A DNA stretch of 64,000 bases from Pegea sp. RAD2-039. Taxonomy: Eukaryota; Chordata; Thaliacea; Salpida; Salpidae. The position numbers were made by a program, and so were the translations under genes. This document shows, piece by piece, positions 10,635-63,048 of the stretch. Below the pieces are notes generated by a model. It was not told the origin of the DNA. It saw only the letters and a list, made by a program, of their open reading frames with translations, and did not search any database. Positions within the stretch are counted from its first letter, which is position 1. Every line of letters begins with the position of its first letter. The stretch is from the NCBI GenBank assembly GCA_034620365.1, contig JAQGEQ010000071.1:1116001-1180000 (forward strand). Reading direction: 5' to 3'.

Positions 10635-10817
10635 ATAAACATTCCATGTAATTGTTCACTGTTATATGCTTTGAGTGATATCGAAATACCATGTGTTACA
10701 TCTTTTACTTTCTATATTTTTGGCTAAATAGATGTTATTTGTGAGAATGTGTGTTAGCGAGAGGTACTCTCTTCAGGTACCCTCCTTCGCATTTATTGAA
10801 ATATATAAATAAAGTGT
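10635..10817 (+). mobile_element. LINE 3' end fragment (copy B)
   Basis: This is a second 5'-truncated 3' end of the family of copy A, with the same block order (ACATTCCATGTAATTGTTCA through to a terminal AT-rich repeat). Its hairpin is perfect: GGTAC at 10763-10767 pairs with GTACC at 10777-10781 around a nine-base loop. Other copies have GGTGC/GCACC, so both arms changed together here. Confidence 0.8.
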
Positions 10818-23944: not shown

Positions 23945-26900
23945 TCATCAAAAACACACAAAAGTGAAATTCAAAAATTATAATGGCAATTATGAAGATA
24001 AATCAACATTGAAGCATTCTAGAAGGAGTGGAAATGATGATGAGTGTTGTTGGTTGAGAACAAAATATTTAACGAAACTAAAACTTATGAGTAAAAAAAA
24101 GCAAAACTGATAAAGAATGTAATATCATCAACTTAAGAAATACATCAGACACATAAGTAGATGATTCAACCGCTACACATCAGACACGCTTCTTTGTTCT
24201 CTAAGGAGCAAAGAAGAGCAGCTTCATTCAGTTCTTTCATCTTTCCACTCTGCCAAGATCAAAAGAAGATTGAAAAGAGATCAAAATATTTGAAAACTGG
24301 ATTGTTTTGTCACTTTTTTTTTAACAAACTTTTCTTTGTTATTTTCAAATAAAAACTAAAAAGGAAATTACATGATCTCCTGATCCACCATTCACAATCT
24401 TTGTTTCTGCCAACTTTTTCTTATCAACAGTAAACTGAATAGCTTGAGCTGCAGGCTTCGTTCGTAAATAATACATTCCAGTCTTCAATCCCTTCAAAAT
24501 AAATTGGATTTATGATTTCATACAAAACATGTTTACAAGTGTTCAAAAGTATCAAGAAAACAATCCACCAAGAGATTAAAAGTTTCGTTTGATGCTAATA
24601 AACAAAACGGTAAAAATCAAAGAATCTCTTCAAGCAGTTTAAGATAAATTATAAATTGCTTTCAAACAACTACAAGAATATTTTACTTCAAATACAACAT
24701 TTGATGCTTAAAAACCAACTTACAGCTTTCCAACCACAAAAATGCATGCTAGTTAGTCTCGCATAACTTGGTTGAGCAATGTGGATGTTCAGACTCTGAC
24801 TCTGATCTATAAAAGCTCCTCTATCAGCAGCCATTTCAATGATCTTCTTTTGTTTGATCTCCCAAACAGTACGATACAACTCCTTCAAGTCATCAGGAAT
24901 ACAGGGAATGTTCTACAAACAATTGTAGTTTAGACAAAATCTTCAGATTAATTGAATCCGAAACATTTGAAGAAAAAAACTAACTTGAATTGATCCGTGA
25001 TCTGCTATCATCTGTAGTTTAACTTCTTCATTCCACAATCCACGTGATGTGAGATCTTTAAGAAGATGATGATTGACTACCTATCATAAATCATTTCATA
25101 TAAACACATGAAAGTGAAAGAAAAAGTTCATATACTTGAAACTCTCCTGATAAAACTCTTCTATTGTAAATGTTACTAGTGTAAGGTTCGATGGATTCAT
25201 TGTTGCCTAATATTTGAGCTGTAGAAGCTGTTGGCATTGGAGCTAGCAGAAGACTGTTTCGGATTCCATATCTATTAAGATTAACATCTTATATTGATAC
25301 AAATAACTATTTGATCTGTGATCGGCATTATTCAAATAAGTCCATCACTTACTCAGCAATATCTTTCTTCAACTTCTGCCAATCCCACAAATCTGTAGGT
25401 TCAACTCCCCACATATCATACTGCAAGATCTGAAACAAGTTTCAATCAGTTTCATTTCAGTAAAAACTCCACAATTTCAAATAAAACTAATTTTGTGATT
25501 TCATCAAAATGATTTTCGAGTGAGATGTCGTCACTTTTTAGCAATGTACACAAAACTCTTTAATCATTCACAACCTTACCCCTTTGCTAACTGGAGATCC
25601 TTCATAAGTTGAATAAGTTCCTTCTTTTCTAGCAAGTTCACAGGAAGCAGTAAGAGCAGCAAAATAAAGAGTTTCAAAGATTTGAATATTTAATTTGGCC
25701 GCCTCAGGACTTTCAAATGGGAACCTCATAATAATGAAAGTGTCTGCAAGCCCTTGTACACCAATACCAATTGGTCGGTGCAACATATTCGATGTTTTTG
25801 CCTAAAATGTAATATCATCACATGTTAATTACACTAATTAAATTGTAATTATTCTTGATCAGGAATTAAAATTGAAGAAAATCACAACAAAAAATATTGA
25901 TGTAGATGAAATTACTTCAGGAATCGGATAGTAGTTGATGTCAATTATCTTGTTCAGATTTTTTGTTACAACTTTTGTTACTTCGTAGAGTTTCTCAAAG
26001 TCAAATGTATGATCTGCTTTGACAAATCGTGGTAAAGCAATTGATGCCAAATTGCAGACTGCCACCTAAAAGTGAAGCAAAAACACATTTGGTCATCATT
26101 ATCTCTCAAAACTGAAAACAATTAGATAAGTTGTGTTCGCTTTTCATATTTAATTGCAGATCTTTGCATTCAATCAGTAATTTGATAAATACTTTCTTGA
26201 ATCAGAAGTTTTTTCAACAATTTACAAATACTAAAAACAACTTCTGTTAATTTTAAGACAAACTGAAACAAAATTTCGAAAATCTCTCACTTCTTCTGGA
26301 CTTGTATATTCCACAATTTCTGTACAAAGGTTTGAACTTTTAATTGTTCCCAGATTTTGTTGGTTCGATTTTCGATTGCAAGCATCTTTGTATACCATAT
26401 AAGGAGTTCCTGTTTCGATTTGTGCCTCTAAGATTGCTTTCCATAAAACTTGAGCCTTCATAGTACTTCTAGCTCTTCCTTCCTTCTCATACCTTGATAA
26501 CAAATCATCAAAAGAATATCAACAAAATTTTCAACATTTTTAAAACTGGTTAGTAATAAAAGTATCAGAATAATCTGATTGATTTAAATCTTAAATGAAA
26601 ATTGTAATTATGAAAATTACTTTGTGTAAAGAGCAACAAACTCTTCACCCCAAACATCACTTAATCCTTTGGCCTCATTTGGACAAAACAACGACCAACT
26701 TTCATCTTTTTCTACCCGCTGCATGAACAGATCAGGAATCCATAAAGCGTAGAAAAGATCTCGAGCACGTGTTTCATCTTTGCCTATAAAATTTCAATTT
26801 AAAAACATCAAAAAATTTAAATTGATTTTTCTCTTTTCAGTTTTTAACTTTAATTAGTTTAATGATCGTCTAATCGTAATCAAATCAAGTTTTGGTTACC

Positions 26901-28345
26901 AGTATTTTTCTTGGCGTCCAAAAAATCAAATATATCGCTGTGCCAAGGTTCAAGGTAAATAGCAAATGCTCCTGGTCTCTAAGAATAAAGAAGGACTTTA
27001 ATGGAAGCTTGAAGGAGAACAGAATACAAACTTTATGTCCTCCACCATCAACGTAACGTGCAGTTGCATCAAAGACTTTTAGCATAGGCAAAATTCCTGA
27101 TGACTTACCGCCACTCTTTAAAAGAAATTATTCAACAAAATTGTTGACATCAAAAAGTTGAAAATTACCCCTGAAATATAACTTCCAGAAGATCGAATAG
27201 AACTAACAGAAACCCCAATTCCACCAAAAACTTTTGAAATTTTAGCAGATTGTTCAATTGTCTTGTAGATACCTTCTAAACTATCATCTTTCATTGTAAG
27301 TAGAAAACAACTAAAAATGACAGAAAAACAGCAAACGGTAAAACAGTAATAAAAAAAAAGATACAAAAAAAATCTTGACAGAAGTAGCTGATTAGTAAAA
27401 TTTCTAAAACCTTGCTAGTTGAGGAAGATATCTTCCAGAATTAAACAAAGTTGGTGTAGCATGAGTAAACCATTTCTCTGACATCAAATTGTATGTCTAG
27501 AATGGAAACAACAAAATCAAACTTTAGTTAATGTAATCAGATAAGACTAACAATAACTCAAATAAACAATTCTATATTTAGAATCAAGAACTTTTGTTGG
27601 CATCAAAATCACTTACTTCAATAACAGAATCCAAATCATTTTTATGAATACCAATTGATACTCTCATAAGCATATGCTGAGGTCTTTCAGCAATCTTTCC
27701 ATTCAACTTCAGCAAATATGATCTTTCAAGAGTCTATTTACAAGATGAAATTACTACAACTTTTTCATATTAATCTAATTTTAAAAATAAGTATGATAAA
27801 AAATAAATAAAATTATAAAATTTTATAATAAAATAGTCTCAAACCTTTATTCCAAAGTATGTATATGAAAAATCTCTATCATATACAATTGCAGAATTCA
27901 ACATCTAAAAAAATTGATGAACTTTTAAAGAATTTTAAAATCTTATAGATTACATCATAAACTAAAAATTCTCTAATTTCAGAAAAGCTTCATTTAAAAC
28001 TCACATCTTTATTTCTTTTAATTATTTCCATAGTTTCATCTGAAATCAAAGGTGAATGCTTCCCAGTTTCAGGGTTGATATAAGAAAATAAATTTTCCAT
28101 TACACCTATAATAATCAAACAATAATTACAAAGTCTAAAATCATCTTTAAAAAAAGATGTTTAAAAAACTTACTGCTAAATTGCTTAGTAGTTTCTTTAT
28201 GAAGATTTGATACTTCAAGGCGTGCAGCAAGAACTGCATAATCAGGATGAATTGTTGTCATCTGAGCAGATGTCTCAGCAGCTAAGATTTCTAACTCCGG
28301 GGTTGTAACACCTTCATAAATACCACTAAGAACTTTCATTGTAAG
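23945..28345 (-). repeat. Left arm of an inverted repeat (ribonucleotide reductase copy 1)
   Basis: The reverse complement of this stretch matches about 36283-41008, in exons, introns and about 200 bases of 3' flank. Example: the whole intron between exons 12 and 13 and the 3' flank down to the CACACAAAAGTG at about 23960 read almost base for base in both arms. The match is interrupted by one island, about 26980-27445, where only protein-level similarity remains. The match starts at the beginning of exon 3 and does not include exons 1 and 2. Confidence 0.9.
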
Positions 28346-28891
28346 TATGTTCTAAAAATTTATTAAATAAATTTAATTATAATTTAGTATCTTAAAATTC
28401 TTACTTTTATATTATTTATTATTTAGTTATTATACATAAACTAATTTTTCTACAATTATTTATATGAAATTATAGCATTAAACATGAAAATATTTTAATG
28501 AATAGTCTTACAGGTTGTACGTATTTCATATCTAAATCATAACAAAGCTCTTTAATTTTAGAACTAATCTTTGTATTGGAAATTGATTCTGTTCGTCCAT
28601 CTTTAATAAAAAGAAAAAAGATCATGAGAACAGTTATTATAAAATAGTCAGTTTGTTTGTTTCTCAGAAATTAGTAAAAAATATAGTTATTACTGTTAGT
28701 TATTATTTCTTAGTCAGTGAATAAATAAACTAGACTGATATGCAAATTCTGTTTTACTTTATAAGTTATAAAAAATTTGGAATACAGATTTATCACAATG
28801 TAATGATATTCAGATTCTAATCTTGAAAAATTTTACAGATATAGTTTTAATATATTTAAAAAGTTCAAAAACCTTGTTTAGTGACTTTCAT
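24166..28891 (-). CDS. RRM1: Ribonucleoside-diphosphate reductase large subunit, divergent-loop copy
   Basis: Class Ia ribonucleotide reductase alpha subunit: reduces NDPs to dNDPs in the cytosol with the small subunit. The exon lengths I measured match the plus-strand copy: 28873-28891, 28512-28600, 28174-28351, 28005-28105 and so on, 27411-27496 (exon 7), 27169-27310 (8), 27032-27115 (9), 24166-24249 (20). I chose ATG 28891 over in-frame 28918 because MKVTKQDGR then aligns with the family start. Cys218, Asn427/Cys429/Glu431, Cys444, Tyr737/Tyr738 and the C-terminal CLMC pair are present, as are effector-site Asp226, Lys243 and Arg256. Exons 1-2 and residues 210-292 differ sharply from the other copy: Ala245 is Phe, loop 1 reads SGGKSSG instead of TNGHSNG, and loop 2 reads DGGGHK instead of DQGGNK, so Gln288 is Gly and Asn291 is His. 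Nothing else is broken: the frame is open and splice sites are intact. It is either a neofunctional paralogue or one relaxed in allosteric control. Confidence 0.93.
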
Positions 28892-28918
28892 CTTAATCCC
28901 TGTGATCTTCTTAATCAT

Positions 28919-29793
28919 TCCTCAAAAATATTGTTTAAAAGTTTTCTACAAAATAAAGATAGAATTTTTTACAAATTTAAATATTTAGATTAATTAATAA
29001 AAAATTTATTAAGTAATAACTACTAAATGTTTAAGCTTTATTAAAATAGTGAAAACTGTTTATCCACAAATTTTGCGAGAAGTTCACTTTTTTACCAAAA
29101 AATACGAAAACACATAAGGACAGCAAAACTTAACAATTTATTACATATAATGATTAAAAATATAATAATAGAATTTTACGAGCGTGGAATATTACCACAC
29201 TATTTCCAATGGTAAATAATAACTTGAGCATTTAAAGTACTGGCGGTAAGTTACATAACAAAATGGTTTTTATATCTAATTTCTAAAAGTACATTTTCCT
29301 TTTAAAAAAAAAACTTTTAATTACCTGAGTATATATATTAACAGATATTTTCCTGAAAAAGAATAAGTTAATGCTTTTAATAGAATTTATTTTCAAAAAT
29401 ATCTTATTTAGATTCTTACTAGCAAACTTCTGAACATTTTACTAGGGAAAACCATGGTTGTTATGTAACAACTTCAATACAAAAATTCTCACAAAGCGTA
29501 ATTCTTTTTAAATCCAAATTTATACTTGAAAAAGAATTGAAAACCTTTATAAGACTATTGATCTTAAAATGCCAACAGCTCAGTAAACTCTTTACCACTT
29601 TCTGTACAAAATTGAAAATTATGAAAATTAAAACCAGCTTCAGTCTTCATACAAAACCAAAAAATTGTAAAAAAATATTTTTATTACTTATTGGATTTAA
29701 AAGAAGTATTAAAAGTAAACAGAAGGTTTGTAAACAAATTGATTTTTTAACTAACAACTTCATCTAGAATTTGTCGCAGAGTAATGGCTTACT
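28919..29793. other. Upstream region of the minus-strand ribonucleotide reductase gene
   Basis: AT-rich and without recognised exons. No TTTCCCGC or TTTGGCGC E2F-type site occurs here, unlike upstream of the plus-strand copy. An open frame at 29537-29767 has biased lysine/isoleucine composition and looks accidental. Confidence 0.45.
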
Positions 29794-32700
29794 TTTATTT
29801 ATTTATTTTGATAAATGCGAAGGAGGGTGCCTGAAGAGAGCACCTCCCAGTAACCCATATTTTCACAAATAAACTCTATTAAGTTAGTAATATAGAAAGC
29901 AAAAGATGTAATACATAGCATTTAAGTAGTCCCGATACGATATAAAAGTGAATAATTAAATAGAATGTAAATTATATAAAAAAATTCTTTAAATCACCGT
30001 CTAGAAATGACAGTGTTAGCAATATTATAACTGTTTAACCTCTACTTGAACAACGCCAGCGACTCCGATATAACAAAGTCTGATGGCAGCTCATTCTAAG
30101 TACTAATTGTGCGGAATGAGAAAAAATTCAATCTGATTAACGTACTAGGTGATATGGACTTATTAAGATGTAATGTGCGTCGTCTGAATTGATATAACTT
30201 GAATAAGAAATCCATTGATAGAATATTGGTTTAGGACATTTGCAGCTGGTTTACGGTAGAAAACTATAAGTTCAGACTTTGTATGCTGGATTCTGAACTG
30301 CCAATTCGTAGACCAGTTTTCTACAGTGTGTAGTGCAGTTTGAAGTTTTGAAGGATTACTAGATAATAGCTTGGTATCATCTGCATACACAAACACTCTG
30401 ACATAATCTACTGCTACTAATCTTCTGATGAGGTCTTCGATGAAAATTAAAAAGAGAAGGGGACCCAGAACAGAACCCTGAGGAACACCACTAGTGATTT
30501 GACTAGAAGTAGATAAAGATCTTTCTACACCAGTTTGTTGGGTTCTACCTGATAAGTAATCTTCGATCCACTGTAAGATAAAGCTGTTGATTTTTAAGTT
30601 TTTCAATACAGTAACGAACTTAGTGTGTGGGACAGAATCAAACGCTTTAGCAAAATCGAGATATATGATGTCACAGGGAGTGTTACTTTCATAATGGGCT
30701 GTAAGCTCATTGAGAAAGGTGAGATGTTGAGTCAGGGAAGATCTCCGCTTCACAAAGCCATGCTAGACATCAGATATTAGATGATGCTCCATCAAATGAC
30801 TGGTCATGTGATTGTGAATAATAAGTTTTTCAGTTCTGCAGATGACTGAGGCCAATGAAACTGGTCTGTAAATAAGTGTAGTATTTCTAGTACCCTTGTT
30901 AAGTATTGATAGCTTTCTTCTCAATTTGTTGAACTCTTCTTCGTCTCAGTGGTGTTAAAGAGTAGAGATAAATGTAGTGATAAAAAGGAAGTAGTTTTTC
31001 TTAAAAACAACGCAGGGATCTGATCTGGGGTGTTAGAAACTGATGGTTTTAAAGAAGAAACCCTTAGCTACCATATCGACTGTTATGTCAAGATCTATCA
31101 TCTCAGAGACATTTGTAAGAATGTCGGAGTAGGAAAGAGAAGGAGTATTGCCATCATCGGTTATAAAAACGCTAATAAATTGATTGTTTAGCAATTCAGC
31201 TTTATTCTCTGGTTTCATCACAAGCTGGTCGCTGTTATCAAGTAAGGGAGGTATTTGAGATCTCGCCTTAAGCTTGCGATTTATGAAACCAAGAAACGTT
31301 TTCTTGCTAGGTGAAGATAAAACTGCACCTTTTCTTCCTAAATAGAAATTAGAAATAGATTTCTTGTAAACTATACAAAGATCTTTGTACAGAGATTTGA
31401 TGGAAGGGTCTGTTTTAGTTTGTTTGTATAGGAGGTTTTTTAAATGTTGTAAATTCTTTAAATTTTTGGGCAAATGTGGTTTTTTGTCGTCTCTATAAAA
31501 AGATATGAATTTCTCAGTTGACTCTTTAACGATGTTAGTAAACTTTGAGTAAATAGTATTAATTTCTTTGGTAGAGTTGAAAAAATAAATCCAGCCGACA
31601 CCTGATAGAAACTTTTTGATACCATTATAATTTCCTCGATAAAAATTCCGTTTGCTTGAAGTTTTAACGTTCATGAAAAAGTTTGATGGAGCTTCAATCA
31701 TGTTGTGATCGCATATCGGAGCAAAAGGTTCTTTTTGATAACCTATATAATGTTCTGAGAGTTTGATGTGATAAAAAGATCCAAAGTGTTACTACTAACT
31801 TGAGTTGGAAAGTAACCATCTGAGATAGATTATTGGCATTGAGGAAGCTTACAAAGGTATGACTTAAAATGGCTAAATTAGGATTGTCGCTATCCAATTT
31901 AAACAATTTTCTTATAAATGCTGAATTCAGGTTATTCCAATCAATTTTACTAAAATTAAAATCCCCCAAAATATATAACTGAGGACACACAACACTATGC
32001 AAAACATTCAATAAGGCCTTAACAGTAACCCCTTCATAATATTTAGTGGGTGGTAGGTAGGTACATATAAAACAAGAAAGTTTGAACTTTGAGTAATGAA
32101 AATCGAAAGCGATAATCTCAAATCCTGGACAATTAATGGTATCGATCTGAATTCTGGAGATCTTGGATGCAAGCGATCTCTTGTAAATTACAATAACACC
32201 GCTGTCTCTATCATACAGCCTGTCACAACGCAAAACACAAAAAAGATTACCGTCAACCAGAAAAGAATTAGTATACAACGGTTTCAACCAAGTTTCAATA
32301 ATAAAAACAAATGTAAAATCTTGAGAAAGCAAAAGAACTTTTAATTTAAAAATTTTGTTAATAATCGACCGCGCGTTGATGAACATACCTAATGTAGTAG
32401 AAGAATTGTCTTTTTGACGCTTGTGAGATTTGATATTAGGCTTCTGTAAGTTTATATCTTGGGCTAGAAGGATGGTATTCCAACTGTGTGCGGAGAGAAT
32501 GTGAAAAAGAAGATGTGGGACCAGTGGTTATTTTTCACTTCTGTTTTTTGAAAAAACCTTGACAATTCTCAAAGCCAATGGTGGACCTCGAACTTTGTAT
32601 ATGAAATCAGTTGGTTGTTCCTTTTTTTCACAAGGCGATTATTTTCTAAGGGATCATCGTCACATATATCATGTGCTACTCTAATGAATTAGAATTTTTT

Positions 32701-32990
32701 GTCAATCCTTAGTTTATATAGCTTGGCAAGAAACTTGTGTTTGTCCCAATTTTCCTGAAATGTCACTTTCAACAGTCCTTGATGATTTGAGATTTTCGCT
32801 CCAAGTTTGGTGATTGATACCTTTGGAACATCCACAAAACCAAGGCTTTGAGAGCACATTTGATTAAAAAACTTACTGTCATCATTTTTATCAGTCTCAG
32901 AGGCATTAAAGATGATGACATTGTTTTCTCTGTCGTCACCGCAAAAACGACTTGGCAAAAACTACAAATGAGAGAAAATGGTCCGTAATT
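29794..32990 (-). mobile_element. CR1/Jockey-type LINE, nearly full length but frameshifted (copy C)
   Basis: Read on the minus strand. 32689-32958 is an ORF1-like RRM fold (ENNVIIFNASETDKND, then LLKVTFQENWDKHKFLAKL). 31694-32386 is an apurinic endonuclease with NARSI, IIETWLK and the GDFN catalytic motif. 31033-31701 is the linker to the reverse transcriptase. 30163-30753 is the reverse-transcriptase core with DFAKAFDSVPH, SGVPQGSVLGPLLF and the catalytic VYADD. The frames are offset, so it is not autonomous now, but motifs are well kept, so it is fairly young. The 3' end has a hairpin (GGTGC/GCACC at 29826-29844) and a short AAATAAATA tail. It lies in the spacer between the two ribonucleotide reductase genes. 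The clade is inferred from motifs and the non-poly(A) tail. Confidence 0.85.
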
Positions 32991-33289
32991 TAGTGGTTTA
33001 TTTTTGTCACCTTCCTTATGAACTAGGATAATGATGGAAATCTTCCATTTTGAAGTTATGTAATTGGAGGATAATGAGAATTTAAAAGCATGTCAGACAG
33101 GTTATATCATAGAATAGATAGATCTTCTAATAACGTTGGAAGAAATTTGTTCAGGTGTTCAAGTTAATTTGTTCTTGATAATGTGTACGGCAGTGAAAAC
33201 GTCAAATTCAGTAATAAAAAATCATCCATAAGATTAGGTTTTCCTGCTTTAAGAACAATCATTTTTACATTTGCACAGTATTACCTACA

Positions 33290-35200
33290 ACTTTGAAGAT
33301 CTCAATTAACACTGATCTGTTTCGAGATGTTAAAGTAGGGATATAAATACAACACAATCTAGCTTCAATCCAGACATTTCAAGCTCACCATCAACAAATG
33401 GTTCACCTGTCAATAAATAAAACTTCAGGCTCTAATTCAATATCACATGATTTTTACTAAAAAACAATCAAAATTGCCATCGTCAGGTCATTAAATATCC
33501 GGGAATCTTCATCTCTCAAGACTTTAAACAAACTCACCACACAAATTATTTCTTCAGAATGGTTCATTAACTTCATACCATATTCTAAAATATTCTAAAA
33601 TAAGAAATATCTGGACACTGTTAAAACTCTACATCGCATTCATCCGTCCTAAATTATAGTTCAACTCTTTCGTATTGAGTCCACACTTTAAAAAATTTTT
33701 ACAAAGCTTGAATCCGTCCAAAGATCATTCAACAGAAAAGCTTTCCATCTTTTAGGTGTGGTATACCCTTTTTCATGCGAAGACTATCTCTATACGATAA
33801 ATATTATTTATTTATTTATTTATTACAATAAATGTGAAGGAGGGTGCCTAAAGAGAGCACCTCTCGCTAACACACATTCTCACAAATTAGATCTATTTAA
33901 CGTGTAAACGAAAAAGCATATGACAATGAAGAATTGCACAGAATCATAGTATTGTAAAAGAGAAAAATTCACAGTTTAGAAATGGCAGTGTTGGCGATAT
34001 TATAACAATTCAGCTTTTTCTTGAACAGCATAAGTGATTTTGACATGACAATCTCTGATGGCAGATTGTTCCATGTACTGATTGTGCGGTATGAGAAAAA
34101 ACTTAATCTGGTTAACGTAGCTGGTGGAGTGGGCTTATTAAGATGTAATTTATGTCTTCTAAGTTGATATAACTTGAGGGAGGGACTAATGGAGAAAAAG
34201 TCATCAAACTGAAGATCAATTAGGTTTAAAATAATTTTAAAAATCAGAATAAGGTCGTATTTAATTCTTCGGATTTCCAAAGTATCTAGATTGAAGAAGC
34301 TGAGACGATGCTTATAACTCTCGTATTTGATATTAAGTTTCCTGCAAACCAATCTCGTAAATGTTGCCTGAACAGATTCGATTTTTCTGATATCACCAAC
34401 TTGATATGGCATCCATGCACTGACATTGTATTCAAGAATAGGGCGTATGTACAGTTTGAAAAGGTTGACGTAAAACCATGGATCTTTAGAATTAAAAGTC
34501 TTTATGATGAGGTGGACAAGCTTGATAGATTTTCCAAAGATTCTGGAAACATAACTGTGCCATTTGAAGTCAGATGTCAGAGTAATGCCGAGGTCTATGA
34601 CTGAGGATACTCGTTCAAGAATAGATCCATTGATGTAGTATTGGTTGCTGAAGTTGGCAGCTGGCTTACGGGAGAATGTTACAACTTCAGACTTTGTTGG
34701 CTGGATTTTAAGTTGCCAATTCGCAGACCAGTTTTCTACAATATTTAGTGCAGTTTGGAGTTTTGAGTGAGAACTAGATAATAGCTTGATGTCGTCTGCA
34801 TACACAAACACACTGACATTGTCTACTGTTATTAGTCTTCTGATGAGGTCTTCAATGAAAATCAAAAAGAGAAGTGGACCCAGGACGGAACCTTGAGATT
34901 AAATTCTTGTAATATCGACGCTTTTTTTCTGACCTTGTACCACTATTTAAAATTATTAATGCTATTTTAACTTCATTGAATACTTTAAAGATAGCAATCT
35001 CCCATACATCCTCTGAGGCTCTTTAGTCAAAATTAAAGCGCTCAACAACTTTAATAACTGCCTGTGGAGCAACAACTTTTTAATAGGTTAACCAACTTTT
35101 GGAATTCCTTTCCCGATTTCATCACCTCATCAAACTTTATCGCAATTTTAAAAATTTTGTTAAAAAATAAGATTTAAGTAGTTTGCTTGACAAGTTATAT
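33290..35200 (+). mobile_element. Old family-2 LINE fragment split by a later insertion
   Basis: The plus strand at 33290-33806 and 34898-35200 together equals the fragment at 9560-10080 (shared AGATCATTCAACAGAAAAGC, TATACGATAAATATTA, TAATATCGACGC). It encodes a decayed reverse-transcriptase C-terminal region with many stops. It is interrupted at 33807-34897 by a piece of the other LINE family. The tract 33000-33290 also has LINE-like character on the minus strand, but I could not place it. Confidence 0.65.
33807..34897 (-). mobile_element. 5'-truncated CR1/Jockey-type LINE nested in an older LINE (copy D)
   Basis: The minus strand keeps a 298-residue open frame (33969-34865) from the end of the reverse-transcriptase palm (VYADDIKLL) through the C-terminal region (RPILEYNVSAW, then LEIRRIKYDLILIFKI). 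It then has the 3' end with hairpin GGTGC/GCACC at 33843-33861 and a TTTATTTATT tail. Comparison with the empty site near 9790 gives a four-base duplication, ATTA, at 33803-33806 and 34898-34901. The truncation begins in the PQGS motif. It is a near relative of the element at 29794-32990, and the long open frame suggests a recent insertion. Confidence 0.85.
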
Positions 35201-35639
35201 ATAGCACAGCCAGTTTTCTAGCTTTATTCTTCTATTTTGTCATATTAGATTTCAGATTCTTAATTTTGTTTTATAATTTACGTTTTACATATACCTATAC
35301 ACTGTTTTTATTCTTGCTGTTATAATCTTAAATTGTGATATTTAAAAGCTTTCAATTTTCTCTTCGCTCATACTATTTTGTTTTTGTTCGCTACAAGAGC
35401 TTTTTAAATGTGTAACTCGCGCGTTAAATAGATAAAGTAATTAACTTAGCATCAGAAAAGCCAGACACTAAATGACTAAGCCACAATGATAAAAACGACA
35501 ATTAGAAAATAGATCCATTTTTTTAGATTATTTAGCTTTTATTTTTGTTCAAGGTCAAAATGCATTTTGATACAGTAGATTTTTAGTGTAGACCAAACAC
35601 TTGCTTTTAAAAAAGTATTTAAACTTATTGGCTAGTTAA

Positions 35640-35657
35640 TCACGTGACATTTCCCGC
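35640..35657 (+). promoter_or_regulatory. E-box plus E2F-type site upstream of the plus-strand RNR gene
   Basis: TCACGTGA (35640-35647) is a palindromic E-box, and TTTCCCGC (35650-35657) is a consensus E2F site; they lie three bases apart about 235 bases upstream of the start codon. E2F control of S-phase ribonucleotide reductase genes is established in animals. A strong acceptor (a run of T ending TTACAG, at 35838) between this site and the ATG suggests a 5' UTR intron or a trans-splice site. Confidence 0.55.
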
Positions 35658-35890
35658 TTTGAGTTTACCGGGTGTTATGATCATTTATCAATTTCAAGCT
35701 AAAGGTGTTGGTGAACTCTCCGGGTTGTTTGCTTTATCAATTTAATATATCTTTAAGTTTTAGTTTAAACTTGAATATTTCGAAGGTTATTATTTTAGAA
35801 GTAATAAATAATTTTTATAAAGTAATTTTTTTTTACAGATTTATATTTAATCTAATATTTTAATTTAAATACTTTTTCTGATCTATAAAG

Positions 35891-38800
35891 ATGTACGTTT
35901 TCAAACGAGGTAAGAACTTCATCCATAAATGTTATTAAAAAATGTTTATTACTTATTAACCTTAATACTTTTTATATTTTTGATAAATTCATAATTAAGA
36001 TAAACTGATGATTGACAGAAACTATTTATATTTATTAAATATAATAACTAATTTGTAATTAAATTAAAGATGGTCGAAAGGAAGGAGTAAACATTAATAA
36101 AGTAACATCAAGAGTTGAAAAGCTTTGCTATAAGCTGAATATGGAATATGTTCATCCTGTAAGCTGTTTGATTTCTTATATTATTATGTTTTTTAAGGAC
36201 CATAATTTAATTAAAAATTTATAATAAAGTAAATAATAAAGTATTCAAGTTTATTTTTTATTCTAGGAAAAAATTACAATGAAAGTTCTTAGTGGTATTT
36301 ATGAAGGTGTTACAACCCCAGAGTTAGACATCTTAGCTGCTGAGACATCTGCTCAGATGACAACAATTCATCCTGATTATGCAGTTCTTGCTGCACGCCT
36401 TGAAGTATCAAATCTTCATAAAGAAACTACTAAGCAATTTAGCAGTAAGTTTTTTAAACATCTTTTTTTAAAGATGATTTTAGACTTTGTAATTATTGTT
36501 TGATTATTATAGGTGTAATGGAAAATTTATTTTCTTATATCAACCCTGAAACTGGAAAGCATTCACCTTTGATTTCAGATGAAACTATGGAAATAATTAA
36601 AAGAAATAAAGATGTGAGTTTTAAATGAAGCTTTTCTGAAATTAGAGAATTTTTAGTTTATGATGTAATCTATAAGATTTTAAAATTCTTTAAAAGTTCA
36701 TCAATTTTTTTAGATGTTGAATTCTGCAATTGTATATGATAGAGATTTTTCATATACATACTTTGGAATAAAGGTTTGAGACTATTTTATTATAAAATTT
36801 TATAATTTTATTTATTTTTTATCATACTTTTTTTTTAAATTAGATTAATATGAAAAAGTTGTAGTAATTTCATCTTGTAAATAGACTCTTGAAAGATCAT
36901 ATTTGCTGAAGTTGAATGGAAAGATTGCTGAAAGACCTCAGCATATGCTTATGAGAGTATCAATTGGTATTCATAAAAATGATTTGGATTCTGTTATTGA
37001 AGTAAGTGATTTTAATGCCAACAAAAGTTCTTGATTCTAAATATAGAATTGTTTATTCGAGTTATTGTTAGTCTTATCTGATTACATTAACTAAAGTTTG
37101 ATTTTGTTGTTTCCATTCTAGACATACAATTTGCTGTCAGAAAAATGGTTTACTCATGCTACACCAACTTTGTTTAATTCAGGAACCATGTGCCCTCAGC
37201 TTTCAAGGTTTTTAAGTTCTGCTGTTTAAATCTATATGTTGAAATTGGTTTTAACTTTTTGTGTGAATGTTTTAATTACTTGAATCTAGCTGTTATAATC
37301 TATTTTTTTTATCTTTATTCAGTTGTTTTCTGTTGACTATGCAATCTGACAGCATAGATGGAATCTTTAAAACTTTAACTCAGTGTGCTTTGATCTCAAA
37401 AACTGCCGGTGGTATTGGTCTTGCTGTGCACAACATACGTGGCAGCGGCAGTTATATCTCTGGTGTAAGTTAATTCTCATATTGTTTGATGTTCAAATTT
37501 TGAGTTATTTTTTTAGACTAATGGACATTCAAATGGACTTCTACCTATGCTGCGTGTTTATAACAATACAGCTCGCTATGTTGACCAGGGAGGTAATAAG
37601 GTTAGTTTCTTTTTATTCGTCTGATAGTATGAGTTTTCATAACAGAAAGATTGCAGAGATATTTGATCAACAGAAACAAGCCAGAAGGTTTAGTCTAGGG
37701 GTGTTTAGAAAATACACATTTTTCTCAGTGCTAGCCTTTATACTCAAAATGTTTTTTAAAAGATTAATATTTGTGACATTTATATAAAAATTGTTGAATG
37801 TTTAGTAAACAAAAAGTAGAAAAGAGACCAATAGTCTCATACTTTTGCTATTTATAACAAGTTGAAATTTGAATAATTTTTTTATAAATTGAATAAAATC
37901 TCACTTCAAATTTTTAGATCTAAATTTCGATAAAAAATTTTGAAATTGTAATTTAATATTCACTTTGTGATCTTATTCTTAGAGACCGGGATCATTTGCT
38001 ATTTACCTTGAACCTTGGCACAGCGATATATTTGATTTTTTGGACGCCAAGAAAAATACTGGTAACCAAAATATGATTTGATTACGATTAGACGATCATT
38101 AAACTAATTAAAGTTAAAAACTGAAAAGAGAAAAATCAATTTAAATTTTTTGATGTTTTTAAATTGAAATTTTATAGGCAAAGATGAAACACGTGCTCGA
38201 GATCTTTTCTACGCTTTATGGATTCCTGATCTGTTCATGCAGCGGGTAGAAAAAGATGAAAGTTGGTCGTTGTTTTGTCCAAATGAGGCCAAAGGATTAA
38301 GTGATGTTTGGGGTGAAGAGTTTGTTGCCCTTTACACAAAGTAATTTTCATAATTACAATTTTCATTTAAGATTTAAATCAATCAGATTATTCTGATACT
38401 TTTATTACTAACCAGTTTTAAAAATGTTGAAAATTTTGTTGATATTCTTTTGATGATTTGTTATCAAGGTATGAGAAGGAAGGAAGAGCTAGAAGTACTA
38501 TGAAGGCTCAAGTTTTATGGAAAGCAATCTTAGAGGCACAAATCGAAACAGGAACTCCTTATATGGTATACAAAGATGCTTGCAATCGAAAATCGAACCA
38601 ACAAAATCTGGGAACAATTAAAAGTTCAAACCTTTGTACAGAAATTGTGGAATATACAAGTCCAGAAGAAGTGAGAGATTTTCGAAATTTTGTTTCAGTT
38701 TGTCTTAAAATTAACAGAAGTTGTTTTTAGTATTTGTAAATTGTTGAAAAAACTTCTGATTCAAGAAAGTATTTATCAAATTACTGATTAAATGCAAAGA

Positions 38801-40794
38801 TCTGCAATTAAATATGAAAAGCGAACACAACTTATCTAATTGTTTTCAGTTTTGAGAGATAATGATGACCAAATGTGTTTTTGTTTCACTTTTAGGTGGC
38901 AGTCTGCAATTTGGCATCAATTGCTTTACCACGATTTGTCAAAGCAGATCATACATTTGACTTTGAGAAACTCTACGAAGTAACAAAAGTTGTAACAAAA
39001 AATCTGAACAAGATAATTGACATCAACTACTATCCGATTCCTGAAGTAATTTCATCTACATCAATATTTTTTGTTGTGATTTTCTTCAATTTTAATTCCT
39101 GATCAAGAATAATTACAATTTAATTAGTGTAATTAACATGTGATGATATTACATTTTAGGCAAAAACATCGAATATGTTGCACCGACCAATTGGTATTGG
39201 TGTACAAGGGCTTGCAGACACTTTCATTATTATGAGGTTCCCATTTGAAAGTCCTGAGGCGGCCAAATTAAATATTCAAATCTTTGAAACTCTTTATTTT
39301 GCTGCTCTTACTGCTTCCTGTGAACTTGCTAGAAAAGAAGGAACTTATTCAACTTATGAAGGATCTCCAGTTAGCAAAGGGGTAAGGTTGTGAATGATTA
39401 AAGAGTTTTGTGTACATTGCTAAAAAGTGACGACATCTCACTCGAAAATCATTTTGATGAAATCACAAAATTAGTTTTATTTGAAATTGTGGAGTTTTTA
39501 CTGAAATGAAACTGATTGAAACTTCTTTCAGATCTTGCAGTATGATATGTGGGGAGTTGAACCTACAGATTTGTGGGATTGGCAGAAGTTGAAGAAAGAT
39601 ATTGCTGAGTAAGTGATGGACTTATTTGAATAATGCCGATCACAGATCAAATAGTTATTTGTATCAATATAAGATGTTAATCTTAATAGATATGGAATCC
39701 GAAACAGTCTTCTGCTTGCTCCAATGCCAACAGCTTCTACAGCTCAAATATTAGGCAACAATGAATCCATCGAACCTTACACTAGTAACATTTACAATAG
39801 AAGAGTTTTATCAGGAGAGTTTCAAGTATATGAACTTTTTCTTTCACTTTCATGTGTTTATATGAAATGATTTATGATAGGTAGTCAATCATCATCTTCT
39901 TAAAGATCTCACATCACGTGGATTGTGGAATGAAGAAGTTAAACTCCAGATGATAGCAGATCACGGATCAATTCAAGTTAGTTTTTTTCTTCAAATGTTT
40001 CGGATTCAATTAATCTGAAGATTTTGTCTAAACTACAATTGTTTGTAGAACATTCCCTGTATTCCTGATGACTTGAAGGAGTTGTATCGTACTGTTTGGG
40101 AGATCAAACAAAAGAAGATCATTGAAATGGCTGCTGATAGAGGAGCTTTTATAGATCAGAGTCAGAGTCTGAACATCCACATTGCTCAACCAAGTTATGC
40201 GAGACTAACTAGCATGCATTTTTGTGGTTGGAAAGCTGTAAGTTGGTTTTTAAGCATCAAATGTTGTATTTGAAGTAAAATATTCTTGTAGTTGTTTGAA
40301 AGCAATTTATAATTTATCTTAAACTGCTTGAAGAGATTCTTTGATTTTTACCGTTTTGTTTATTAGCATCAAACGAAACTTTTAATCTCTTGGTGGATTG
40401 TTTTCTTGATACTTTTGAACACTTGTAAACATGTTTTGTATGAAATCATAAATCCAATTTATTTTGAAGGGATTGAAGACTGGAATGTATTATTTACGAA
40501 CGAAGCCTGCAGCTCAAGCTATTCAGTTTACTGTTGATAAGAAAAAGCTGGCAGAAACAAAGATTGTGAATGGTGGATCAGGAGATCATGTAATTTCCTT
40601 TTTAGTTTTTATTTGAAAATAACAAAGAAAAGTTTGTTAAAAAAAAGTGACAAAACAATCCAGTTTTCAAATATTTTGATCTCTTTTCAATCTTCTTTTG
40701 ATCTTGGCAGAGTGGAAAGATGAAAGAACTGAATGAAGCTGCTCTTCTTTGCTCCTTAGAGAACAAAGAAGCGTGTCTGATGTGTAGCGGTTGA
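35891..40794 (+). CDS. RRM1: Ribonucleoside-diphosphate reductase large subunit, canonical copy
   Basis: Twenty exons join to 797 residues: 35891-35909, 36070-36158, 36267-36444, 36513-36613, 36714-36773, 36885-37001, 37122-37207, 37323-37464, 37517-37600, 37983-38061, 38178-38340, 38469-38670, 38896-39045, 39160-39381, 39532-39608, 39690-39825, 39881-39976, 40049-40237, 40470-40589, 40711-40794. The model reproduces the residue numbering of human and yeast enzymes: Cys218, Asn427/Cys429/Glu431, Cys444, radical-relay Tyr737 and Tyr738, and the C-terminal CLMC shuttle pair. The N-terminal ATP-cone starts MYVFKRDGR. The specificity loops are canonical: TNGHSNG (loop 1) and DQGGNKRPG (loop 2), with Gln288 and Arg293 kept. 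It is the likely housekeeping S-phase enzyme given the upstream E2F-type site. It faces away from the minus-strand copy across a LINE-filled spacer. Confidence 0.97.
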
Positions 40795-41008
40795 ATCATC
40801 TACTTGTGTGTCTGATGTATTTCTTAAGTTGATGATATTACATTCTTTATCAGTTTTGCTTTTTTTTACTCATAAGTTTTAGTTTCGTTAAATATTTTGT
40901 TCTCAACCAACAACACTCATCATCATTTCCACTCCTTCTAGAATGCTTCAATGTTGATTTATCTTCATAATTGCCATTATAATTTTTGAATTTCACTTTT
41001 GTGTGTTT
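36283..41008 (+). repeat. Right arm of the inverted repeat (ribonucleotide reductase copy 2)
   Basis: Matches the reverse complement of 23945-28345 from the start of exon 3 to about 210 bases past the stop codon, interrupted by the island 37150-37982. In that island, introns differ in length and sequence (about 830 bases here against about 460 in the other arm) while the exon lengths stay the same. The arms diverge again after about 41008. Confidence 0.9.
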
Positions 41009-41790
41009 TCGTGATATTTCTATGCGTTGTATGAAGTAAAAAGTTTCTGGAATGGAAGCGTCTCTTTCTGAATATATTTTTATGATTAAACTAATCAAAT
41101 TTGTTGGTAAATCTTTCTGTTTATGTTAGGATGATGAAAAGATGAAACTTTTTGTCCTGAATATTTTTATTAGTTTTTTATGAGTAGAGTCCTTCCTACT
41201 TTTTGTTTAAAAATTTCTATCATATCAGCAGTACAATACTTGTTTCGATAAATTTTGTTATTTTTATAGATTGTAGACCAATTTTGTAAACTTTATTTAA
41301 ATTGTTTCATATCAAAGTTGATTTATTTTCCCAACTAAACATCTTAAACTAGTTTTTATAAATATTGAATAATCTCTTAATATTTTGCAAACTTTAATTT
41401 GACAAAAATTATTAAATAAATTAGAATTTTTTGATAAGTAACTCTGATTTCATGATAATTGAGGATTTGATCAAATTCAAAACATTAAAAATAGTTTTTA
41501 TATTAATGAATCCTTCAATCATCAATTCATCCCCTTTACATGGAGTAATTGTTCAGACGTTTTCGCTGACAACAGTTTTTTTAATGTTTTAAAGCAGTTT
41601 TTCTAACTGAATCATTTGAAACAATTTTTATCCATCTTCCAAAAACATCTTAAAATGCTGAAAAAGTTATTTGTTAAAATCTATTAGTTGTATAGTCTAT
41701 TTTAGAAATAATATAAAAAGTACAACGTAATAATCTTCTAAATAGACTGTTAGTTCAATTGTTGGATATTTTCTGCTCAATGGTGACACC
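41009..41790. other. 3' flank of the plus-strand ribonucleotide reductase gene
   Basis: AT-rich, with no exon and no repeat recognised. It includes the unmatched flank immediately beyond the inverted-repeat boundary. Confidence 0.5.
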
Positions 41791-42152
41791 ATCTAAAAAC
41801 CTGAAGATAGTCATCAACGATCGTAAGTTTTCTGTCTGGGTTTACTCTCAAGGCGTTTGCTTCTTTTGAATCACAAGGCGGTGGTACTATTCGATAATTG
41901 GAAAGATATTATCCGCGCTAGATATAGCACTACATCCTATACGGCTAGGTGGTTTGAACTTACCCGTGCAAACTGAAATGGATTTGTGGCTAATCGTTTT
42001 AAACGCTTATCTATCAAGTTTCCAAACTATTAGTTGAAGGCTAGGTGACAACATGAACAATTTTGGTAGGTTATATATAAGTAAGAAAAATGTGTTAGCG
42101 GGAGTTGCTTTCTTTAGGCACCCTCCTTCGCATTTATTGTAATAAATAAATA
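41790..42152 (+). mobile_element. LINE 3' end fragment (copy E) with GC-richer leader
   Basis: 42085-42152 has the family signature: ATGTGTTAGCG, a hairpin (GTTGC at 42104-42108 against GCACC at 42118-42122, one mismatch), CCTCCTTCGCATTTATTGTA and an AATAAATAAATA tail. The preceding 41790-42060 is richer in GC than the surroundings but does not match the 3' region of the other copies. It may be older LINE or unrelated repeat sequence. Confidence 0.6.
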
Positions 42153-60332: not shown

Positions 60333-62241
60333 GGCTTAAACTTTAAAAATGTAAACATGACTTCAAAATAAAGATACCGCACATTGCTATCAAAAGTTAA
60401 ACAGCCTTAATCAAGAATTTGTTTTGGAAAAGTAGTTTATAAGTATTATGACATCACTTTAACATACGTTTTTGGGGAATTTTAAGAAAGTCCTGATATT
60501 TTAGTTGTAGTTCAATTTCTACTAGAGTTAGTTTCTACTTTTGTTATCTTCTGCTTTAGTTCTTCGAGGCAGTTTATCTGGCTGCTTTCAAGTTTTTCGA
60601 GCCTGTGTTATATAAAATCAAGTATATATAGATGTAAAGTAGTATTGCTTCGTGTTGGCAATCGCTTGTTTCATGCCCGCTTTATAATAGAATAGAGCTC
60701 TCTTAAAGAGTAATTATAATTACAGAATACAAAAGACGTTAGTGTCTAAAAAGCTGTAATAGACAACAAAATCTCATCTAAAATATTTAAGAGAGAAACA
60801 AAGCAGTTTTTATTAGAGCTATAGTGTTTGCTCGGTGAAAAGTAAATGAAATTTACCTGCCTTACAAATATATCTAGCTGATTAAATATCTTTATACTTT
60901 TTATAATTTAGTTTCTTTTTATTGATTCTCCAACTTTCTTTTTTAAGATACTTTGTTTTGTAACTTTCCTCTAAACTGGTTTTTCATACATTTGTATAGT
61001 TTTGCATCAACCTCAGGATTCGTCTGTAAGTCAAGTTTAGCTAGGTGTTGCTTGCCAAGAAGTTTTTACAATTCAAGCTTGTAAATCAGCTTATCTATTT
61101 TTTATTATATTTATCATTGAATTCAAAAAATATTCAAAAAATTTGTTATGATCGGTCATGCAGTTCTACTTTGGTTGTAGCTCTAAAACTTAAAACTGAT
61201 GCATTGAATATTGCAAAATATTAAAAAGACAAAAATAAGTCTTCATTAAAAGAATTTTTATTATCAATAATTTTAAAAGATAATATTGTTTTTGAATTGG
61301 ACAATAAATTTAGAGTTTCTAGATCAACTTTGGTGTGAGCTTATATGGGTATCAAATCATAATTTCCTTGAGGCGTTTCTCATTACTTGAGCATTAAATA
61401 GTTTAATACTGAAGTTTTAAATGTATTTTTACAATATGAAAGTAAAATTATTATTGTCAGAAGTTTTATATCAAGGATTTATCAAAATTTTCAACAAAAT
61501 TACAGCTTATTTTTAATTTTATTTCAAAGAATTAATTTAGTTTTGCTTTTGTAACTATTACGTTTGTAATATATATAATCAATAATGTATAATCTCATTG
61601 ACAATAGTTTTTTAATTATAAAAAATTATTAATTTATATATTCTATAACATTATTTAATCGTTTGTGTGTTTAATTTTTCATGATTTTTGAATATCAACT
61701 ATTATATGAAAAAATAATTAATTAGATTCAAAAATGACTTTTTATATCATTGAAATTCTACAAAATATTTGCAACAAAATAATCATAAAATGTTTAACCT
61801 TCAAAATTTTGTGATCTTTGTATACTTATAAATATCAGATTATTAATTTAATGTTTTAATACAATTTTAAAAAGGTTTTTTACTGGAAACATTTTTTTAA
61901 TGTTAAAATTGTTGATATCATCTCAAAATGCTGTCTTGAACTTAAGTTTGTTTGATTAAAGTTTGCAAATCTGAAAAAAAATTTGAAAACTTTTTTTTAA
62001 TTATAATGATTGAAAAAATATTTATAAATCTTTCTTGATTTCTTTCATAGTTGTATCAACATATATAAGTCTAATTTTGAGGCTTAGAATAAGTTAAGAT
62101 AGTTTCTTGATTAACCTTCATTAAATTCTTTTATTTAAAAACTATTTTGTGCTGTTTTATGTCAATACTTTTCAAATTGTATATAAATAATATATTATAG
62201 TTTTAATATATTATAGTTTTAAGGATATACTTGGCAAAAAA
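60333..62241. other. Intergenic region between divergent genes, with one possible orphan exon
   Basis: Mostly AT-rich. On the minus strand, 60512-60602 has an acceptor (ATAACACAG) followed by a 29-codon open frame with leucines spaced as in a coiled coil (LEKLESSQINCLEELKQK) ending in TGA. No partner exon was found. It could be a 5' untranslated exon, an orphan exon of a decayed gene, or chance. The remainder shows nothing. Confidence 0.25.
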
Positions 62242-62850
62242 ATGAATAGTTCACTTAAATTTGGTGTTCCTAATATTAATTTGGAAGAAGTCAGTGCTTT
62301 AAACCATAATAGGTCAATAACATTTGTGAACACATTCATTAGTAGAACTTCTGACTTTCTGAATAGGTATGCATCTAAAGCTGAAGAAAATCTATCTGCT
62401 CAAACACTAGAAATGCAAAAGTTAGAGATAGCAATAAACATTATTGAAGAAAAACTTGCCTCTATTCCAAGTCTAAAAGATTTTAAAGCTACAGCTGTAA
62501 TAGAACAAGAAAATAATTCAACAACTAAAACTGAAGAAAAGTCTGTTCAAAGTGAAGAACCAAAACCATCAGATACTTTTGTTGAAGAAAAAGATGCAAA
62601 CACAAATTTAGAATCAACTCAGCCAGTTGAAGAGAATTTTATTAAAGTTAAAGATGATTCGAGATATTCTAAATATTTCAAAATGGTTAATGTTGGTGTA
62701 CCTAAAATGGCTGTTGAAAATAAAATGAGACAAGAGGGCCTAAACCCTGATTTGTTGGATACACCTGATGCCCCATGTCCTCAAGAAGAAGAAGTTAGTG
62801 ATTTTAGTGGTGATGATAGTGGGTCTACAGCAAGTGGATTTAGTGATTAA
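62242..62850 (+). CDS. WASHC3: WASH complex subunit 3 (CCDC53)
   Basis: A subunit of the WASH complex, which activates Arp2/3 on endosomes and supports retromer-dependent sorting. A single open frame of 202 residues, without introns. The N-terminal helical region ITFVNTFISRTSDFLNRYA, then EIAINIIEEKLASIP, forms the conserved coiled coil. A low-complexity acidic/Thr-Gln linker follows. The conserved C-terminal block reads DDSRYSKYFKMVNVGVP, then MRQEGLNPDLLDTPDAP, and the protein ends in an acidic Ser-rich tail. Length is close to human (194). It is followed 198 bases later by cyclin C on the same strand. Confidence 0.95.
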   Translation: MNSSLKFGVPNINLEEVSALNHNRSITFVNTFISRTSDFLNRYASKAEENLSAQTLEMQKLEIAINIIEEKLASIPSLKDFKATAVIEQENNSTTKTEEKSVQSEEPKPSDTFVEEKDANTNLESTQPVEENFIKVKDDSRYSKYFKMVNVGVPKMAVENKMRQEGLNPDLLDTPDAPCPQEEEVSDFSGDDSGSTASGFSD

Positions 62851-63012
62851 ATTTTGTTCTTATTAAAACTTAAACTTGTGCAATCATTTGTAATTTTTTT
62901 ATCTTATTGTTTATTTATCATTTATTCATGTAATAATTGTCTGTCCATTTTATTTAAATAATTTAATACTAGTAATTGAAAAGTATTACATGAAATTACA
63001 ATTTATATAATT

Positions 63013-63024
63013 TGTGTCATACAG
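63013..63024 (+). promoter_or_regulatory. Candidate 3' splice acceptor just upstream of cyclin C
   Basis: TTGTGTCATACAG ends at 63024, 24 bases before the cyclin C ATG, inside the 198-base gap after WASHC3. As the coding sequence has no intron, this could be a trans-splice (spliced-leader) acceptor of a two-gene operon or the end of a short 5' UTR intron. The polypyrimidine tract is weak. Confidence 0.25.
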
Positions 63025-63048
63025 GTTAACTTTATTAGTAGTTTTAAT

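What the first reader, a model, noticed from the sequence alone, without database searches (positions are those of the whole stretch)
23945..41008. Inverted pair of ribonucleotide reductase genes, homogenised except at allosteric modules
Two complete large-subunit genes form an inverted repeat with arms of about 4.5 kb that match in exons, introns and 3' flank. Divergence is confined to exons 1-2 (outside the arms) and to one island spanning exons 7-9. In that island introns differ in length and sequence, so the islands look like old paralogous sequence and the rest like recently converted sequence. The islands coincide with the ATP-cone and with effector loops 1 and 2, while all catalytic residues sit in homogenised or conserved positions. 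Selection keeping two allosterically different enzymes in the face of gene conversion would explain this.
Basis: partly seen in the sequence, partly recalled or inferred. Interest (0 to 1): 0.88.

Follow-up and report, generated by a model that had tools for sequence, protein, structure and literature searches.

The report
Ribonucleotide reductase twins with divergent regulation
An animal genome carries two head-to-head copies of the enzyme that makes DNA building blocks, kept almost identical by DNA copying between them except in parts that control the enzyme, which suggests a natural pair of the same machine with two different control panels.

Summary
Gene A (- strand, 28891-24166) and gene B (+, 35891-40794) are intact 20-exon, 797-aa class Ia large-subunit genes with equal exon lengths. 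The arms are near identical through exons, introns and about 215 nt of 3' flank (0.40% difference over 3037 nt, 1.10% over 907 nt) and stop sharply at codons 1 to about 39 and 210-291. Synonymous divergence is 0.017 in the arms and saturated in the islands (pS 0.74): old paralogues partly overwritten by gene conversion.

The islands hold the N-terminal half of the ATP-cone, the alpha-dimer helix, and loops 1 and 2. B is near canonical there. A departs at positions almost invariant in 94 reference R1s: Q288G, A245F, N270S, R6Q and, isolated inside an arm, D57E. Catalytic residues and named effector contacts are the same in both.

Published Gln-to-Ala mutants at this place shift the enzyme towards purines, so A is best read as a purine-biased R1 with altered feedback, sharing one R2 with B. 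That step is inferred. Selection is plausible but unproven: no related animal genomes were held for segment trees, and passive exclusion of diverged DNA from conversion stays possible.

The parts
24166..28891 (-). Gene A: R1 large subunit, 20 exons, 797 aa, divergent regulatory modules
   Evidence: model; 1332 bits to human RRM1, chain 3hnc_A; Pfam ATP-cone, all-alpha and barrel domains in residues 1-346
35891..40794 (+). Gene B: R1 large subunit, 20 exons, 797 aa, near-canonical regulatory modules
23951..26988 (-). Homogenised right arm in A: exons 10-20, introns, about 215 nt of 3' flank
   Evidence: 0.40% difference to 37973-41009
37973..41009 (+). Homogenised right arm in B: exons 10-20, introns, about 215 nt of 3' flank
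27433..28339 (-). Homogenised left arm in A: exon 3 to mid exon 7; holds the D57E difference
   Evidence: 1.10% over 907 nt
36279..37185 (+). Homogenised left arm in B: exon 3 to mid exon 7
28340..28891 (-). Island 1 in A: exons 1-2 and head of exon 3 (residues 1-39, half of the ATP-cone, part of the cone-cone interface)
   Evidence: exon 1 donor weak
35891..36278 (+). Island 1 in B
26989..27432 (-). Island 2 in A: residues 210-291, dimer helix, loop 1, loop 2 (VDGGGHK, Q288G)
37186..37972 (+). Island 2 in B: residues 210-291 (VDQGGNK)
28892..35890 (.). Spacer between the facing 5' ends, with remnants of non-LTR retrotransposons (30163-34898)
   Evidence: RVT_1, Exo_endo_phos_2; 82% repeat

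Best explanation
A duplication gave two head-to-head R1 genes. Gene conversion between the inverted arms, probably more than once, keeps the catalytic barrel, the substrate and radical-path residues and the C-terminal redox tail the same in both (shown as sequence). Two stretches escape and stay as old paralogous sequence: the N-terminal half of the ATP-cone, and the dimer-helix, loop 1 and loop 2 block (shown). B keeps near-normal regulatory residues. A is a working R1 whose control is altered: without the loop 2 glutamine (Q288G) it should lack the hydrogen bond that favours CDP/UDP and so lean towards purine substrates, and with R6Q and D57E its dATP feedback should be weaker or different (inferred from mutants of other species). 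Both use the one R2 found (inferred). Selection for keeping two regulatory versions removes converted islands (inferred).
For: Mosaic divergence: dS 0.017 in the arms, saturated in the islands. Arms of different age: 10 of 907 nt against 11 of 2674 nt, p=0.024. Both ORFs and splice sites intact. Constraint on the islands. Of 57 regulatory or alpha-alpha interface positions taken from the papers, 22 differ between A and B (22 of all 56 differences); 8 of 796 circular shifts reach that. A alone departs at Q288 (94 of 94 references, one of these letters set by me), R6 (91 of 92 with a residue), D57 (86 of 93), A245 (93 of 94), N270 (92 of 94). A loses 20 of 63 conserved sites in island 2 against 19 of 307 in the arms (p=1.5e-7); B loses 10 of 63. 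Published: E. coli Gln294Ala keeps ADP/GDP and loses CDP/UDP activity; yeast Gln288Ala as sole R1 gives a severe S-phase defect and beside a wild-type R1 raises dGTP/dATP over dCTP/TTP (PMC4728125 passages). D57N removes dATP inhibition (PMC5819950 passages). One R2 locus.
Against: No expression, enzyme or population data. The named effector contacts (226, 243, 256, 263, 264, 287) and R293 are the same in A and B. 0 of 14 active-site positions differ, but 400 of 796 shifts also give 0, so that contrast carries no weight. Island 1 runs into the diverged 5' flank and need not be a protected island. Diverged DNA resists conversion by itself, so persistence does not require selection once islands exist. 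A loses more conserved sites than B only at p=0.059, and partial relaxation would give the same. D57E is a conservative change about 17 codons from the island edge, beside a synonymous difference. The site list of the position test was drawn up after the islands were known. PMC4728125 states that the loop 2 Gln is unlikely to be strictly conserved beyond characterised enzymes.
Confidence: 0.55

Rival explanations
1. Passive mosaic: the islands are stretches too diverged, or with introns too different in length, for conversion to start or heteroduplex to survive. They persist without selection for two regulatory types, and the copies are kept for dosage or for different promoters.
For: Island edges are sharp; intron 9 is 53 nt in A and 382 nt in B, intron 7 is 100 against 115 nt; the 5' regions show no clear similarity, so expression may differ.
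Against: It does not explain why the diverged part lies on the regulatory and alpha-alpha interface modules (8 of 796 shifts), why A alone loses near-invariant regulatory residues while keeping frame, or the isolated D57E inside an arm.
Confidence: 0.25
2. A's regulatory block drifts under relaxed constraint (low-expressed or partly redundant gene), while conversion from B rescues the rest.
For: A's end branch in the island tree is 1.02 against 0.21 for B; A loses 20 of 63 conserved sites in island 2.
Against: pN 0.28 against pS 0.74 in the islands; 43 of 63 conserved sites and the named effector contacts kept; neutral simulation keeps frame and splice sites in 0 of 3000 runs at 0.5 changes per site.
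Confidence: 0.12
3. Partner choice (compatible with the best explanation): the islands set which alpha subunits pair. A and B form preferred A-B dimers or mixed rings, or avoid each other, much as yeast Rnr1 and Rnr3 form a cross-talking complex.
For: The islands cover the dimer helix 228-244, and A and B differ at cone-cone interface positions 12, 15, 16, 23 and 37 (interface from PMC5819950 passages; differences). Four charge reversals between A and B in residues 1-40 (23, 24, 28, 32; count, sites); 1 of 140 reference pairs of similar identity reaches four, mean 0.86. Both copies lack F15 and D16, each present in 84 of 94 references.
Against: 0 charge reversals in island 2. K/E swaps cost one base. 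The 140 pairs share sequences and are not independent. No complex was modelled.
Confidence: 0.25
4. Artefact: the inverted arms are a mis-assembly or two haplotypes.
For: Very high arm identity; no reads available.
Against: Islands saturated at synonymous sites; real differences in both arms; retrotransposon-bearing spacer between the copies.
Confidence: 0.04

Closest known systems
Class Ia ribonucleotide reductase large subunit (human RRM1, yeast Rnr1)
   Same: Same domains and similar length, catalytic cysteines, radical-path tyrosines and C-terminal CLMC; best solved match of A is human RRM1
   Different: Two copies in one genome, one of them with Q288G, A245F, N270S, R6Q, D57E; both lack F15 and D16 of the cone-cone interface
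Yeast Rnr1/Rnr3 large-subunit pair
   Same: Two R1 paralogues in one cell with different product balance: Rnr3 complexes make less dGTP (PMC5673236 passages; its reference list carries the title of Domkin 2002 on a cross-talking Rnr1/Rnr3 complex)
   Different: The passages seen say nothing of homogenisation or regulatory islands; here 673 of 676 residues outside the islands are identical
GOT1p1/GOT1p2 of the copepod Tigriopus (gene conversion with islands of divergence)
   Same: Paralogues with highly diverged regions in the face of apparent ongoing conversion (PMC3728101 abstract)
   Different: Different gene; here the islands map on known regulatory modules of a well-studied enzyme, in an inverted head-to-head pair
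Herpesvirus class I enzymes without specificity control
   Same: A few natural class I enzymes are reported to lack specificity regulation (PMC3267527 passage)
   Different: Viral; not compared residue by residue here

Membership tests
Class Ia R1 (RRM1/NrdA) | ATP-cone, all-alpha and barrel domains over Pfam cut-offs | tested here: met
   Residues 1-346 of A and of B: all three over the cut-off; the barrel family also matches the later exons of both
Class Ia R1 (RRM1/NrdA) | Catalytic C218, N427, C429, E431, C444 and Y737, Y738 | tested here: met
   All kept in A and B; 94 of 94 references at each. Roles partly recalled, partly from the passages
Class Ia R1 (RRM1/NrdA) | C-terminal CxxC pair | tested here: met
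   CLMC at 792-795 in both, aligned to human CLMC for A; its role is recalled
Class Ia R1 with standard specificity control | Loop 2 glutamine (288) and arginine (293) | tested here: not met
   B has both; A has G288 and R293. A is an R1, but is not filed as one with standard specificity control
Class Ia R1 with dATP feedback | D57 and cone-cone interface D16 | tested here: not met
   A: E57, T16; B: D57, N16. The effect on feedback cannot be tested here
Gene pair in concerted evolution | Near identity of introns and flanks with sharp edges against old paralogous sequence | tested here: met
Gene pair in concerted evolution | Homogenised parts group by species, islands by copy | not testable with these tools
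   The genome tool holds no relatives of this genome (output); tree with distant references unresolved
Rnr1/Rnr3-like cross-talking pair | Mixed A-B complex with its own activity | not testable with these tools
   No expression or protein data; one R2 locus found

The most novel reading that the evidence does not exclude
The pair is one two-mode enzyme system. Conversion acts as upkeep for a common catalytic chassis, while two regulatory and interface cassettes specify a balanced, feedback-controlled R1 (B) and a purine-biased R1 with altered feedback (A). These mix into hetero-oligomers through reciprocal charges at the cone interface, so the dNTP balance is set by the A:B ratio.
Probability: 0.2. 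Interest if true: 0.82.

Novelty: new variant of a known kind. Interest (0 to 1): 0.64.

Why it matters
If true, nature has run the loop 2 glutamine experiment beside a matched control: two R1 proteins with 673 of 676 residues identical outside the islands, differing almost only in regulatory parts. That makes it testable in one organism how dNTP balance follows from the loop 2 glutamine and the ATP-cone. It would also be an example of gene conversion that unifies a catalytic body while sparing regulatory modules.

Tried and rejected
Horizontal origin of A's island from a virus or bacterium: not supported. A and B share island states rare in the 94 references (K233 3 of 94, S258 1, S263 4, L273 1). 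The island tree pairs A with B but with weak support (35/61), and the AU test does not reject B with human apart from A (p=0.267; 35 rows = A, B, human, yeast, 11 of 12 viral rows, 20 of 80 bacterial rows). A sister relation is likely, not shown. A scan of viral contigs for a YVDGGG..K motif gave 2 stretches, neither an R1 by tblastn. A first viral scan with A and B alone matched 50 stretches and no relative.

Third R1 copy as donor: none found in the held assembly. Missing exon 1 in A: a 19-nt candidate with the right phase was found at 28891-28873. The 95% figure for the 3' flank (I3) was an ungapped-alignment effect; it is 1 mismatch in 363 nt.

Organism: Wnt genes are present, so an animal. 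Searches for an arthropod and a nematode cuticle family gave nothing but had no positive control; COX1 was not found. No species is named.

Papers: library searches for an R1 pair of this kind or R1 with gene conversion: 0 papers; 10 listed of 1,262; 10 of 52; 13 of 13; 12 of 31, general. I saw titles and starts of abstracts; none described such a pair. Two searches for Q288A gave 0 papers. This is not proof of absence.

Full report
OBSERVATION. Two R1 genes lie head to head. A: 20 exons from 28891 down to 24166. B: 20 exons from 35891 up to 40794. Each encodes 797 aa, with equal exon lengths at all 20 exons and GT..AG at all 19 introns. The inverted repeat was found by repeat search and by BLAST.

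DIVERGENCE PROFILE. Per exon and intron: exons 3-6 and 10-20 are 96.6-100% identical and introns 3-6 and 10-19 are 98.2-100% identical. Exons 1, 2, 8 and 9 are 58-68% identical, and exon 7, split by an island edge, 88%. Introns in the islands differ in length (intron 9: 53 against 382 nt). On one alignment the left arm has 10 mismatches in 907 nt; the right arm with 3' flank has 12 mismatches and one gap column in 3037 nt (11 in 2674 plus 1 in 363). Left arm against the 2674-nt part: p=0.024, which suggests separate conversion events. Edges are sharp: inside exon 7 near codon 209, ten bases before exon 10, and about 215 nt past the stop codon. Arms have dS 0.017 and dN 0.001; codons 1-36 have dS 1.48; codons 208-292 have pS 0.78, beyond correction.

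WHERE THE ISLANDS FALL. Human numbering runs without gaps to about residue 765. Loop 1 is 255-271, loop 2 is 286-295, effector contacts are D226, K243, R256, A263, G264 and D287 (PMC5819950, passages); [quoted passage not shown] The internal island is 210-291; the first is 1-39. Of 57 such positions (with I18 and D57 of the activity site) 22 differ between A and B; the pattern slid round the protein gives 22 or more in 8 of 796 shifts. None of 14 active-site or radical-path positions differs, which 400 of 796 shifts also give, so that half of the contrast carries no weight. The list was drawn up after the islands were known.

WHAT CHANGED IN A. Against 94 references (80 bacterial, 12 viral, human, yeast), A has G at 288 (Q in 94 of 94; the yeast letter was set by me, and the viral set is biased at this site by its search pattern), F at 245 (A in 93 of 94), S at 270 (N in 92 of 94), Q at 6 (R in 91 of 92 with a residue) and E at 57 (D in 86 of 93). 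B has the common residue at each. D57E is one of three residue differences in the arms (57, 193, 296). Both copies lack F15 and D16 (84 of 94 each). The named effector contacts and R293 are unchanged in A (at 263 both copies have S where human has A), so A probably still binds effector; what is lost is the glutamine that passes the signal to the substrate base. At sites conserved in at least 85% of references, A keeps 43 and B 53 of 63 in island 2; both keep 65 of 70 in residues 59-209 and 223 of 237 in 293-740. A's excess of losses over the arms is p=1.5e-7, B's p=0.017, A against B p=0.059.

IS A A DEAD MODULE? pN/pS in the islands is about 0.38, with N against S p=2e-11 in island 2. A neutral simulation from B's island kept frame and three GT..AG pairs in 4 of 3000 runs at 0.3 changes per site and in 0 of 3000 at each of 0.5, 0.75 and 1.0. 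A is therefore constrained, though faster (end branch 1.02 against 0.21).

FUNCTION, INFERRED. E. coli Gln294Ala keeps ADP and GDP reduction and loses CDP/UDP activity. Yeast Gln288Ala as sole R1 gives a severe S-phase defect, and beside a wild-type R1 it raises dGTP/dATP over dCTP/TTP (PMC4728125 passages). A beside B resembles that last experiment, so A is predicted to be purine-biased and tolerable because B is present. D57N removes dATP inhibition, and D57 bridges two arginines of the activity site (PMC3267527 passage; the arginines are not named there). A has E57, and Q6 and K21 in place of R6 and R21, so feedback is expected to change, in a direction that cannot be read from sequence.

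PARTNER CHOICE. Residues 1-40 carry four charge reversals between A and B; reference pairs of like identity have a mean of 0.86, and 1 of 140 reaches four (pairs not independent). Island 2 has none. This keeps open that the islands decide who pairs with whom.

ORIGIN. A and B share island residues that are rare elsewhere, which favours a split inside this lineage. The tree agrees but without support.

COMPARISON. Yeast Rnr1/Rnr3 is the nearest functional precedent (PMC5673236 passages) and Tigriopus GOT1 the nearest evolutionary one (PMC3728101 abstract). The listings of five library searches showed no R1 pair of this kind (only part of the hits were listed in 34, 56 and 63). PMC4728125 warns that the loop 2 Gln is unlikely to be strictly conserved beyond characterised enzymes, so Q288G alone may not be unique.

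VERDICT. Conversion over old paralogues is near certain, a functional regulatory split is likely, and selection as the keeper of the islands is plausible but unproven.

Noticed in passing
window 30163-34898 (-): Remnants of non-LTR retrotransposons lie in the spacer between the two genes; two stretches of 284 nt are 82% alike (30199-30482 and 34614-34897).
   Followed up: partly
window 10639-10813, 29794-29968, 33811-33899, 42086-42152: A short interspersed repeat of about 60-175 nt recurs in both orientations around the gene pair (79-94% alike).
   Followed up: no
gene A and B residues 15 and 16: Both copies lack F15 and D16 of the cone-cone ring interface (each in 84 of 94 references), so ring formation may differ in both enzymes, not in A alone.
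   Followed up: partly
introns of A and B: Several intron acceptors end in AAG rather than CAG or TAG (4 of 19 in A, 3 of 19 in B by the models).
   Followed up: no
window 62191-62850 (+) and 62980-63879 (+): A WASH-complex CCDC53 subunit frame is followed closely by a cyclin frame on the same strand; cyclin C by my recall of its sequence.
   Followed up: no
window 35820-35890 and 28892-28960: A T-rich stretch ending in AG lies some 50-55 nt upstream of each start codon, as for a 5' UTR intron or a trans-splice acceptor.
   Followed up: no
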